38,059 nt of DNA from Betaproteobacteria bacterium HGW-Betaproteobacteria-4 (lineage in GTDB: Bacteria > Pseudomonadota > Gammaproteobacteria > Burkholderiales > Rhodocyclaceae): positions 1 to 38,059 of the forward strand of contig PHCH01000070.1 of NCBI GenBank assembly GCA_002840785.1, read 5' to 3'. Under the pieces are notes generated by a model. That model did not search any database. It was not told the origin of the DNA and saw only the letters and a program-made list of their open reading frames with translations. Of the stretch, positions 3,445-37,525 are shown one piece after another (positions within the stretch are counted from its first letter, which is position 1; the number at the start of each line of letters is the position of its first letter). The translations under genes and the position numbers were made by a program.

Positions 3445-6400
3445 ATGCAGCAACCCGACCGTACCGCCGAACTTTCCGCCCTGCTTGCCGAGAAGATGCT
3501 CGTCCTCGACGGCGCCATGGGCACGATGATCCAGCGCCACGGATTGCAGGAGGCCGATTACCGCGGCACACGTTTTGCCGATCACGCCCACGACCTCAAG
3601 GGCAACAACGACCTGCTGGTCCTGACCCGGCCGGACGTCATCGGCGGCATTCATCGCGACTACCTCGAAGCCGGCGCCGACATTCTCGAGACCTGCACCT
3701 TCAACTCGACCGCCGTGTCGCAGGCCGACTACAAGCTCGAACCCATCGTTTATGAGCTGAACTTTGAAGGCGCCGCGCTGGCCCGCCGCCTGTGCGACGA
3801 ATTCACCGCCGCCAACCCGGCCAAGCCGCGCTTTGTCGCCGGCGTGCTCGGCCCGACCAGCCGCACGGCGTCGATCTCGCCGGACGTGAACGACCCCGGC
3901 TACCGCAACGTCACTTTCGACGCGCTGGTCACCGATTACCTCGAAGCGATCCGCGGCCTGACCGATGGCGGCGCCGACATCCTTCTGGTCGAAACCATCT
4001 TCGATACGCTCAACGCCAAGGCCGCGCTGTTCGCCATCGAGAAATTCTTCGACGCCGCCGGGCGGCGCTGGCCGGTGATGATTTCCGGCACGATCACCGA
4101 CGCCTCCGGCCGCACGCTGTCCGGCCAGACGGCCGAGGCGTTCTGGAATTCGCTAAGCCACATCAAGCCCGTCTCCTTCGGCCTCAACTGCGCGCTCGGC
4201 GCCAAGGAGTTGCGCCAGTACGTCGAGGAACTGTCGCGGGTCTGCGACTGCTACGTCTCGGCCCACCCGAACGCCGGCCTGCCCAACGCCTTCGGCGGCT
4301 ACGACGAAACGGCCGACATGCTGGCCGATGAAATCGAGAGCTGGGCCAAGGCCGGCATCGTCAATATCGTCGGCGGCTGCTGCGGCACTTCGCCCGAGCA
4401 CATCATGGCCATCGCCGAGCGGGTTGCTACGGTCAACCCGAGAAAAGTGCCGAAAATCGAAAAGAAGCTGCGCCTGTCCGGGCTCGAGCCGTTCAACGTC
4501 GGGGCCGATTCGCTCTACGTGAACGTCGGCGAGCGGACCAACGTCACCGGCTCGAAGGCTTTCGCCCGCATGATCCTCGAAGGCCGCTTTGACGATGCGC
4601 TGGCCGTCGCCCGCCAGCAGGTCGAGAACGGCGCCCAGGTCATCGACATCAACATGGATGAGGCGATGCTCGATTCCATCGCCGCGATGGACCGTTTCCT
4701 CAAACTGATCGCCTCGGAGCCGGACATTTCGCGCGTGCCGATCATGATTGACTCTTCGAAGTGGGAAGTCATCGAAGCCGGCCTCAAGTGCATCCAGGGC
4801 AAGGGCATCGTCAACTCGATCTCGATGAAGGAAGGCGAAGCCAAGTTCCTCGAACACGCCCGCCTCGCCCGTCGCTACGGCGCGGCGGTCATCGTCATGG
4901 CCTTCGACGAAAAGGGTCAGGCCGACACCTTCGCCCGCAAGACCGAGATTTCGAAGCGCGCCTACGACCTGCTGCTGAGCATTGGTTTCCCGGCTGAAGA
5001 CATCATCTTCGACCCGAACATTTTCGCCATCGCCACCGGCATCCCGGAACACGACAACTACGCCGTCGACTTCATCAATTCGGTACGCTGGATCAAGCAG
5101 AACCTGCCGCACGCGCACATTTCCGGCGGCGTATCCAACGTGTCGTTTTCTTTCCGCGGCAACGACGCCGTGCGCGAGGCGATCCACACGGTTTTCCTCT
5201 ACCACGCCATCAAGGCCGGCATGACCATGGGCATCGTCAATGCCGGCATGCTTGGCATCTATGACGATCTCGAGCCGGAACTGCGGCAGAAGGTCGAGGA
5301 CGTGGTGCTCAACCGCAACCCGAACGCCGGCGAAGCGCTCGTCGACTTCGCCCAGACCGTGAAAGAAGGCAAGGCCAAGGACACCGGCCCCGACCTTTCG
5401 TGGCGCGAGCAGTCGGTCGAAAAACGCCTTGAACATGCGCTGATCAAGGGCATCACCGAGTTCGTCGTGGCCGACACCGAAGAAGTCCGTGCCCAGCTCG
5501 AAGCCGAAGGCAAGCCGCCGCTCGCCGTCATCGAGGGGCCGCTGATGGCCGGCATGAACCATGTCGGCGACCTGTTCGGCGCCGGCAAGATGTTCCTGCC
5601 GCAGGTCGTCAAATCGGCCCGCGTCATGAAGCAGGCCGTCGCCCATCTGCTACCCTACATCGAAGCAGAAAAGACCCGTACCGGCTTGGGTTCCAAGGGC
5701 AAGATCCTCATGGCGACGGTCAAAGGCGACGTGCACGACATCGGCAAGAACATCGTCGGCGTGGTGCTTGGCTGCAATGGCTACGACGTGGTCGACCTCG
5801 GCGTCATGGTCTCCTGCGACAACATCCTGAAGGCGGCGCTCGAGCATCGCGTCGACATCATCGGCCTGTCCGGCTTGATCACCCCGTCGCTCGAGGAAAT
5901 GGCCCACGTCGCCAGCGAAATGCAGCGTCAGGGCATGAAGCAGCCGCTGTTGATCGGCGGCGCGACGACCAGCCGCGCCCATACCGCCATCAAGATCGCC
6001 CCCAACACCGATGGCGCCGTCGTCTACGTGCCGGACGCCTCGCGCGCCGTCGGCGTCGCCACCAAGCTGCTCTCGGTCGATCAGCGCGACGGCTACATGG
6101 CCGAAATCGTCGCCGAGTACAAGGCCGTGCGCAGCGAACACGCCGGCCGCAAAGGCGCCACCATGGTCACGCTGGAAGAAGCGCGCGCCAACCGTTTCGT
6201 GCCGGATCAGCCGTTCTCGCCGACCATCCCGAAACAGCTCGGCCTTCAAACGCTCAACCCGAGTCTGGCCGACCTGGCGCTGCTCATCGACTGGACGCCG
6301 TTCTTCCAGAGCTGGGATCTGGCCGGTCGCTATCCGGCCATCCTCGAGAACGAAACCGTCGGCGAAACCGCCCGCCAGTTGTTCGCCGACGCCAAGGCCA

Positions 6401-36608: not shown

Positions 36609-37525
36609 GGAATATCGAAACGGTCACCCACTTTCAACGGGTGCCCGGCCAGGAATTGCTGCACCGGCAAACGCTTGCCACCGGCCTTCTGTAATTCCGT
36701 CACAGCCAGCGCGCCCTGGCCACAGGCGACAACCACATTGCTACGGTCAACTGCCAAAATGGTGCCAATTTCACCCGCGCCAACCACCGGTGTCGCCTGC
36801 CACAATTTCACCGTCTGGCCGCCAAAGAGGGCCTGCGCGCCAGGGAAGGGGTTGAAGGCGCGGATGTGGCGATCCAGTTCCGTCGCACTCTTCGACCAAT
36901 CGATCAGCGCCTCGGCCTTCTCGATCTTGTGCGCGTAAGTCACGCCCACGGCCGGCTGCGGCTCGGCCGGCAACGGCAACTTGCCCAGCGCCTCGACGGC
37001 CAGCTTCGCGCCGAGCTCGGCCAGCCGATCATGCAACGTGGCCGTGGTATCGCTCGCCTCGATGGGAAAAGCTCCACGCAACAGCACCGGCCCGGTATCC
37101 AGGCCAGCCTCCATCTGCATGATGCAGACGCCCGTCTCGGCATCGCCGGCCAGCAAGGCCCGCTGGATCGGCGCCGCGCCACGCCAGCGCGGCAACAGCG
37201 AGCCGTGGATGTTGATGCAGCCGAAACGCGGCAGGTCAAGTACGACCTGCGGCAGGATCAGGCCATAGGCCGCCACCACCATGACCTCGGCGCCAACCGC
37301 GGCAATCTTCGCCTGCGCCTCGGCATCCCTCAACGTCAAGGGCTGAAAGACCTCGATGCCATTTTCCAGCGCCACCTTCTTGACTGCCGAGGGCTGCAAA
37401 CTCATACCTCGCCCGGCCGGCCGATCCGGCTGCGTCAGCACCAGCGCCACTTCGTGCCCTGCCGCAACGATGGCCCGCAAGGCCTGTGCAGCAAATTCCG
37501 GCGTTCCCGCGAAAATCAGCCTCAT
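36602..37525 (-). CDS. fmt: Methionyl-tRNA formyltransferase
   Basis: Fmt formylates initiator Met-tRNA using 10-formyltetrahydrofolate. The 307-residue protein has the N-terminal MRLIFAGTPEFAA, the folate/catalytic region AAYGLILPQ, NIHGSLLPRWRGAAPIQ (with the active-site N and H) and a C-terminal tRNA-binding domain (HIRAFNPFPGAQALF). The start overlaps the def stop (ATGA at 37522-37525), the classical def-fmt pair. The open frame runs further upstream through def to 37786, but that part is a shadow. A dispersed element copy lies near the 3' end, coding for AVDRSNVVVACG. Confidence 0.98.
   Translation of the reverse strand: MRLIFAGTPEFAAQALRAIVAAGHEVALVLTQPDRPAGRGMSLQPSAVKKVALENGIEVFQPLTLRDAEAQAKIAAVGAEVMVVAAYGLILPQVVLDLPRFGCINIHGSLLPRWRGAAPIQRALLAGDAETGVCIMQMEAGLDTGPVLLRGAFPIEASDTTATLHDRLAELGAKLAVEALGKLPLPAEPQPAVGVTYAHKIEKAEALIDWSKSATELDRHIRAFNPFPGAQALFGGQTVKLWQATPVVGAGEIGTILAVDRSNVVVACGQGALAVTELQKAGGKRLPVQQFLAGHPLKVGDRFDIPA
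36737..36777 (+). repeat. Dispersed uptake-signal-like element, copy 7
   Basis: The core ATTGCTACGGTCAACTGC is followed by CAAAAT, GGTGCC and AATTTCA. It lies in fmt, antisense to the gene, and keeps the invariant CTACGGTCAAC. Confidence 0.82.

What the first reader, a model, noticed from the sequence alone, without database searches (positions are those of the whole stretch)
4423..36777. Seven copies of a dispersed element shaped like a DNA uptake signal sequence
Seven sites (4423+, 8524-, 15633-, 16795+, 21965-, 34640+, 36737+) share the invariant 11-mer CTACGGTCAAC. Three match the 18-base consensus ATTGCTACGGTCAACCGG exactly. On both strands of a 38-kb window about 0.02 copies of a given 11-mer are expected by chance. 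All copies carry A/T runs on the same side at about positions 19-25 and 30-36, often a third near 38-41, one helical turn apart, in GC-rich DNA. The core is not palindromic, copies occur in both orientations, and six of seven lie inside unrelated genes. A fixed core plus phased A/T tracts is the architecture of the Haemophilus-type uptake signal. I know of no such signal described in Rhodocyclales. Alternatives are a nucleoid/segregation motif or a spreading miniature repeat.
Basis: partly seen in the sequence, partly recalled or inferred. Interest (0 to 1): 0.88.

Follow-up and report, generated by a model that had tools for sequence, protein, structure and literature searches.

The report
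New DNA-uptake signal in Azonexus bacteria
Over 900 copies of one 40-base DNA tag are scattered through this bacterium's genome, and about half of the genomes of its genus carry hundreds of copies, several in spellings of their own; the tag likely marks DNA for preferential uptake by kin, as in Haemophilus, which would make this a third bacterial family with such a signal.

Summary
The 11-mer occurs 7 times in the window (0.01 expected) and 468 times in its 4.07-Mb genome (reversed control 1). The unit is about 40 bases: a core and three A/T tracts. A pattern of this architecture hits 940 places in the genome (control 5) and over 300 in 40 of 76 genomes of its genus (inferred: Azonexus); 28 have 43 or fewer, 8 lie between. 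Outside the genus it reaches at most 16 in 373 family genomes. Copies are strand-neutral, regularly spaced, enriched outside genes, and kept at orthologous places, often in the local dialect: core kept in 38 of 51 alignments from rich genomes, 1 of 15 intermediate, 0 of 21 poor, with no gap over 3 bases. These are genomic hallmarks of an uptake signal sequence; 5 of 7 dialect models contain GCGGT, as in Pasteurellaceae. No uptake experiment or receptor is known, and ComEC does not separate rich from poor genomes.

The parts
4423..4462 (+). copy 1, inside metH (3439-7110)
   Evidence: exact 11-mer, 40-base matrix, MetH by NCBIfam
8485..8524 (-). copy 2, intergenic (between 7207-8322 and 8739-9473); perfect 18-base core, weak A/T tracts
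15594..15633 (-). copy 3, inside murB (15172-16302); core kept at the orthologous place in 10 of 10 rich congeners aligned there
16795..16834 (+). copy 4, inside an Amidase_3 gene (16137-17003, minus strand); core kept in 7 of 7 rich congeners aligned
19894..19933 (+). additional copy, GCTGCGGTCGAC form, inside a ROK-family sugar kinase gene (19107-20000); core kept in only 3 of 11 rich congeners aligned
   Evidence: 40-base matrix, orthologues, family
21926..21965 (-). copy 5, inside ORF 21777-22760 (no family found); core kept in 6 of 9 rich congeners aligned
24731..24770 (+). additional copy, CTACGGTCGAC form, inside priA (22831-24837); core kept in 10 of 11 rich congeners aligned
   Evidence: 40-base matrix, orthologues, PriA by NCBIfam
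34640..34679 (+). copy 6, inside an S1/P1 nuclease gene (34182-35123)
36737..36776 (+). copy 7, inside fmt (ORF 36602-37786, minus strand, Formyl_trans_N and _C)

Best explanation
The repeat is a genome-wide 40-base element made of a conserved core and phased A/T tracts, copies of which arise by point mutation rather than insertion, and it likely works as a DNA uptake signal sequence, read on incoming double-stranded DNA by a surface protein of the type IV pilus competence machinery. SHOWN: copy number, anatomy, strand neutrality, regular spacing, enrichment outside genes, point-mutational change at orthologous places, spellings that differ between species, patchy distribution confined to one genus among those searched. 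INFERRED: repeated loss from a common origin; a cell-surface receptor, most likely a type IV pilin-class protein, that would contact the (R)CGGTCRAC core; A/T tracts, starting about nine bases after CGGT and about ten bases apart for the first two, that would help the DNA bend or melt as it is pulled through the outer membrane; passage through ComEC and recombination. Because matching fragments would be taken up more often, better matches would replace worse ones by recombination, which would keep about 1,000 sites in concert and let the spelling of all of them shift together when the receptor changes. When the preference is lost, sites would decay by point mutation, as the relics in poor genomes suggest.
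For: 468 exact 11-mers, control 1; 940 architecture hits, control 5; top-ranked 11-mer in a 436-kb sample, 58 v 0.3 expected under an order-4 Markov model; 108 matrix sites v 0 in reversed sequence. Perfect cores outnumber single mismatches, 58 v 39; spacing more regular than random (7 of 87 gaps under 1 kb v 21 expected, 95% range 14-28; CV 0.67 v 0.90); no replication-strand bias (39 v 40); preference for non-coding DNA (40 of 108 v 12% expected, p = 2e-11, rough gene calls): properties listed for USS and DUS in PMC1626085 (passages). Core kept at orthologous places in 38 of 51 alignments from rich, 1 of 15 from intermediate and 0 of 21 from poor genomes. Architecture hits in 11 of 11 rich 20-kb stretches and 0 of 9 others (5 poor, 4 intermediate). 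Own ComEC aligns from first to last codon of a relative's in one frame; 19 pilin-like matches, 18 over the cut-off. The exact 18-mer is in one stretch of the viral collection.
Against: No uptake or binding data exist. ComEC is not lost with the element: by my reading it is broken in 4 of 38 rich and 6 of 23 poor genomes with a readable gene (p = 0.16; 7 of the 68 rich or poor genomes set aside as absent or fragments at contig ends; 1 of 8 intermediates broken and not in the test), so many poor genomes keep it. Among pilins found by a motif search none is present in all 4 rich and missing from all 3 poor genomes compared, and the FimT-class pilins of the minor-pilin operons of this genome and its same-dialect sister G369 are only 30% identical. 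Density is 248 per Mb here (183-626 in relatives with usable models), below the roughly one per kb of the known cases. No closely spaced pairs here (minimum spacing 335), unlike the known cases. Sites are not all kept between rich species (3 of 11 at the kinase site). One of 29 alignments has a 13-base gap inside the element. Inside genes one orientation is commoner (46 v 22). ComEA, DprA and the secretin were not searched.
Confidence: 0.85

Rival explanations
1. The element is the binding site of a nucleoid-structuring or chromosome-positioning protein; dialects follow changes of that protein.
For: Regular spacing and presence over the sampled genome; ComEC retained in many poor genomes; A/T tracts also suit a DNA-bending protein.
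Against: Not palindromic, no replication-strand bias (39 v 40); respelling of hundreds of sites would need selection on each site one by one; patchy in the genus, unusual for an essential chromosome function; most copies inside genes (68 of 108 cores).
Confidence: 0.08
2. The element is a recombination or repair hotspot (Chi-like), or a recognition site of a modification or defence system.
For: Abundant, often intragenic, kept in many species of the genus.
Against: Chi-type sites are oriented with replication (recalled), these are not; about 40 specified or AT-biased positions are far more than such enzymes read (recalled).
Confidence: 0.04
3. The element is a spreading miniature repeat (MITE- or REP-like) that inserts copies of itself.
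For: Many perfect cores (58 perfect v 39 single mismatches).
Against: In 87 orthologue alignments through window sites no run of gaps inside the element exceeds 3 bases; in 29 others the largest is 13, inside the element. The same places hold other spellings or mutated forms. No longer flank conservation.
Confidence: 0.02

Closest known systems
Pasteurellaceae uptake signal sequence, Haemophilus type (Hin-USS, AAGTGCGGT) and Actinobacillus type (Apl-USS, ACAAGCGGT)
   Same: GCGGT in the core of 5 of 7 dialect models; A/T-rich segments on the 3' side only; hundreds of copies; both orientations; preference for non-coding DNA with many copies in genes; regular spacing; more perfect than singly mismatched copies; origin by point mutation (their features from PMC1626085, passages).
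   Different: Core (R)CGGTCRAC with lineage-specific 5' letters, ACGGT instead of GCGGT in the window's own dialect; tracts start further from the core, first two centred 10 apart (12 in Hin), and there is a third tract; lower density; uptake not tested; host in another family (Rhodocyclaceae by record titles).
Neisseriaceae DNA uptake sequence (DUS, GCCGTCTGAA and dialects)
   Same: Dialects between species of one group, abundance, no orientation bias; both hosts are betaproteobacteria (recalled).
   Different: Sequence unlike; DUS has no flanking motifs; inner core CTG (PMC12616744, passages) absent here; ComP not identified here.
KOPS/AIMS-type segregation motifs and Chi (recalled)
   Same: Short, abundant, non-palindromic, partly intragenic.
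   Different: Those are strongly skewed with replication direction (recalled); these are not.

Membership tests
Uptake signal sequences as a functional class (USS/DUS) | strong over-representation across the genome | tested here: met
   468 v control 1; 940 v 5; 108 v 0 matrix sites
Uptake signal sequences as a functional class (USS/DUS) | no orientation bias along the replicon | tested here: met
   39 v 40 on G-rich/C-rich strand of stretches with GC skew over 0.02
Uptake signal sequences as a functional class (USS/DUS) | more regular spacing than random | tested here: met
   7 of 87 gaps < 1 kb v 21 expected; CV 0.67 v 0.90
Uptake signal sequences as a functional class (USS/DUS) | preferentially in non-coding DNA yet many in genes | tested here: met
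   40 of 108 non-coding v 12% expected (rough gene calls)
Uptake signal sequences as a functional class (USS/DUS) | more perfect than singly mismatched cores | tested here: met
   58 v 39
Uptake signal sequences as a functional class (USS/DUS) | arises by point mutation, not insertion | tested here: met
   87 + 29 orthologue alignments without an element-sized gap; one 13-base gap inside an element
Uptake signal sequences as a functional class (USS/DUS) | about one copy per kb | tested here: not met
   0.25 per kb in the own genome, 0.18-0.63 in six relatives with usable models
Uptake signal sequences as a functional class (USS/DUS) | often in closely spaced inverted pairs | tested here: not met
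   minimum spacing 335 in the own sample; overlapping opposite hits do occur in the relative G447
Uptake signal sequences as a functional class (USS/DUS) | preferential uptake of DNA that carries it | not testable with these tools
   needs an uptake experiment
Uptake signal sequences as a functional class (USS/DUS) | host has competence machinery | tested here: inconclusive
   ComEC in one open frame, 19 pilin-like matches; ComEA, DprA, secretin not searched; ComEC does not track the element
Pasteurellaceae USS (Hin or Apl type) | core AAGTGCGGT or ACAAGCGGT | tested here: not met
   consensus TGCTACGGTCAAC here, TTGCGGTCGAC-like in relatives; only (G)CGGT shared
Pasteurellaceae USS (Hin or Apl type) | two A/T-rich segments 3' of the core | tested here: met
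   three tracts, positions 20-24, 30-34, 37-39; spacing differs
Neisseriaceae DUS | CTG inner core, no flanking motifs | tested here: not met
Segregation motif (KOPS/AIMS) | skew with replication direction | tested here: not met
Mobile miniature repeat | element-sized gaps at empty orthologous sites | tested here: not met

The most novel reading that the evidence does not exclude
Azonexus carries a third, old lineage of self-recognition in DNA uptake, ancestral to the genus, respelled genome-wide into dialects and lost several times; and its GCGGT core plus phased A/T tracts is so close to the Pasteurellaceae signal that both may descend from, or have exchanged, one DNA-reading competence protein across the beta/gamma divide, so that uptake signals would not have arisen only as isolated inventions.
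Probability: 0.25. Interest if true: 0.92.

Novelty: new variant of a known kind. Interest (0 to 1): 0.86.

Why it matters
[quoted passage not shown] A third family, in a genus whose members named here are metagenome-assembled genomes, with about 1,000 copies in a genome, several dialects and a patchy presence, would give a natural experiment on why such signals arise, how a whole genome changes spelling, and which protein reads them. It also predicts that these bacteria are naturally transformable and which tag to add to DNA meant for them. If the GCGGT core shared with Pasteurellaceae is not chance, it would bear on the long-open identity of the USS receptor.

Tried and rejected
First gene caller missed real genes (fmt, amidase) and overstated the non-coding share (32 of 58 exact cores); replaced, still rough (it calls a minus-strand frame over murB). 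Markov k-mer search in eight relatives found the dialects in G002, G008, G010, G014, G030 and weakly G015, and none in G018 or G024; G024 has 374 architecture hits genome-wide but only 5 seeds in its 100 kb, so its matrix (156 sites v 17 in the control) is unusable. GspH/FimT as receptor: present in 69 of 76, no discriminator; the operon members of two same-dialect sisters are 30% identical, so no structure model was made. ComEC as discriminator: not significant. Viral contigs: one stretch (L282) with two copies, not pursued. Order-wide draw: no other carrier among 247 genomes outside the genus. Forward/reverse totals over 40 rich genomes are balanced (13,842 v 13,835) but say little on replication, as contig directions are arbitrary. 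Literature: the listings of searches show no uptake sequence described for Rhodocyclales, Rhodocyclaceae, Azonexus or Dechloromonas (library without most subscription papers and without preprints). Papers seen in passages only: PMC12616744 and PMC1626085; PMC2346458 as a listing with the start of its abstract.
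Full report
CHECK. The seven 11-mers are in the window at the stated places (mean 0.01, none of 100 shuffles reached 7). Three carry the exact 18-base consensus. Two further copies in the window, in a sugar-kinase gene and in priA, have GGTCGAC cores and were found with a 40-base weight matrix.

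GENOME SCALE. The window is contig 99 of a draft of 4.07 Mb in 174 contigs. It holds 468 exact 11-mers, 248 forward and 220 reverse, against 1 match of the reversed pattern. The whole genome was not available as a file, so I read 20 stretches plus the window, 436 kb. There the motif gives the top-ranked 9- to 12-mers (58 exact 11-mers v 0.3 expected). The pooled copies give A(T)TGCTACGGTCAACCGGAAAAAATGGCCAAAAATGAAAT; information is low before the first base (0.37 bits at the base just before it) and falls to background after the third A/T tract. An iterated matrix finds 108 sites at a threshold where reversed sequence gives 0, that is 248 per Mb.

ANATOMY. The strictest part of the matrix sites is CGGTC and, one letter on, AC. 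A/T tracts lie at positions 20-24, 30-34 and 37-39 of the 40-base unit. The first two are centred ten bases apart, about one helical turn; the first starts nine bases past CGGT. The unit is not palindromic.

DISTRIBUTION IN THE GENOME. Orientation does not follow GC skew: 39 copies on the G-rich and 40 on the C-rich strand of stretches with clear skew. Spacing is over-regular: smallest gap 335, 7 of 87 gaps under 1 kb where random placement gives 21 (14-28), CV 0.67 v 0.90. With improved but still rough gene calls (88% coding), 40 of 108 copies are non-coding, three times expectation, and within genes 46 read with and 22 against the gene. The abstract of PMC2346458, cut off in the listing, says that one orientation has a higher occurrence in the known families too. 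Perfect cores exceed all single mismatches, 58 v 39.

DISTRIBUTION AMONG SPECIES. The exact 11-mer reaches only 0-55 in 35 congeners and 0-5 in 24 genomes of other families, because congeners use other spellings: k-mer and logo analysis of 81-120 kb from relatives gives CCACGGTCAACCGG (G002), GCTGCGGTCRAC (G014), and TTGCGGTCGAC-like forms (G008, G010, G015, G030), with downstream A/T tracts, the first of them weaker in the last group. A pattern for the shared architecture (RCGGTCRAC, then an A/T pair and an A/T triplet at the tract places) gives 940 hits here v 5 in the control. Over all 76 genomes of the genus held, 40 have 307 or more, 8 have 51-128 and 28 have 43 or fewer. Of 395 family genomes, the 373 outside the genus have at most 16; of 250 drawn from the order, the 247 outside the genus have at most 15. 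The ACGGTCAAC spelling makes up 632 of 940 hits here but 40 of 760 in G008 and 16 of 621 in G357.

ORIGIN OF COPIES. I compared the nine window copies with the orthologous 20 kb of 20 congeners: 11 rich, 4 intermediate, 5 poor. 87 alignments pass through a site and none has a run of gaps over 3 bases inside the element; the core RCGGTCRAC is kept in 38 of 51 from rich, 1 of 15 from intermediate and 0 of 21 from poor genomes. By site the rich genomes keep 10 of 10 (murB), 7 of 7 (amidase), 10 of 11 (priA), 6 of 9 (21926) and 3 of 11 (kinase). The spelling is often local: the murB copy reads GCTACGGTCAACCGG in G369, GCCACGGTCAACCGG in G002, GTCACGGTCAACCGG in G390 and GCTGCGGTCGAC in G014. Poor genomes show mutated remnants, such as GCTACGGTCAATCTG in G018. 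The architecture pattern is present in 11 of 11 rich stretches and in 0 of the 9 others. In 29 further alignments from other samples the largest gap is 13 bases, inside the element. So copies change by point mutation in place, as reported for Haemophilus USS (PMC1626085, passages).

HISTORY. On a PriA tree of 74 of the 76 genomes (two with split PriA were not fetched; midpoint root, for drawing only), rich genomes lie on most early branches, although the first is a long poor one (G022), and poor genomes fall in several places: 8 changes for the poor label (shuffled mean 21.6), 13 for the rich label, at least 4 forced by well-supported branches for either. One old origin and repeated loss is my reading; several gains are not excluded by this tree.

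MACHINERY. The genome has ComEC in one open frame and 19 pilin-like matches, 18 over the cut-off, including a minor-pilin operon. I looked for a receptor without success: GspH/FimT occurs in 69 of 76 genomes; in four rich and three poor genomes no pilin found by a motif search separates the groups; and the FimT-class pilins of this genome and its sister G369 are 30% identical, though PriA is 98% identical and the dialect is the same. ComEC is broken in 4 of 38 rich and 6 of 23 poor genomes with a readable gene (tallied by eye), not significant. Loss of the signal is therefore not simply loss of ComEC; loss of preference with uptake retained, or loss of other parts, are both open.

WHAT IT IS. 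The facts match the genomic features listed for the signals of Haemophilus and Neisseria, with two departures: lower density and no closely spaced pairs in this genome. It works like one, likely; membership of the Pasteurellaceae USS family is not claimed, since the core differs, though (G)CGGT and 3' tracts are shared. A further match of the next letters (CRA) to Pasteurellaceae consensus is recalled, not tested.

NOVELTY. The listings of ten searches of the held library show no such signal in this order, family or genus, and a 2025 paper names only two families.

Noticed in passing
L373-L374 (G002), L375-L376 (G463), L377, L379-L383, L387: comEC is interrupted at two fixed places, near codons 237 and 254, in several congeners (both pieces found in G002, G463, G471, G029; only the 3' piece in the fetched stretches of G259, G472, G005, G018, G019, the last at a contig end). 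The inserted DNA is about 33 kb in G002 and G463, and the stretches are low in GC in most (0.51-0.56) but not in G471 and G029. The G002 insert encodes a serine recombinase, a type ISP restriction enzyme, a CHAT-domain protein, a B-type DNA polymerase and a CoiA_N-domain protein; the architecture pattern has one hit in its two stretches, inside the comEC 5' piece. Mobile elements may target competence here.
   Followed up: partly
L384 (G035) and L385 (G452): comEC is split between two reading frames in G035 (poor) and G452 (rich, 874 hits), so the signal can persist for a time without an intact ComEC.
   Followed up: partly
L091-L103 (own genome) v L339 (G369): The minor-pilin operon is strikingly divergent between sister species (FimT-class pilins 30% identical, PriA 98%), suggesting replacement or fast diversification.
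   Followed up: partly
G030, G010, G447: In the GTCGAC dialects the core plus its mirror makes the palindrome GCGGTCGACCGC, 8 counts v 0.1 expected over both strands in each of the G030 and G010 samples; G447 has overlapping opposite hits, perhaps terminator-like inverted pairs.
   Followed up: no
G017: Has the ACGGTCAAC spelling in 504 of 1042 hits although its PriA places it outside the clade that mostly uses it: dialect convergence or transfer.
   Followed up: no
L282: The only viral contig stretch with the 18-mer carries two copies (matrix scores 55 and 42) within 12 kb; phage, or bacterial DNA binned as viral.
   Followed up: no
window 15172-17003: The murB ORF matches its family only to residue 309 of 376, and its end overlaps the opposite-strand amidase ORF by 166 bases.
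   Followed up: no
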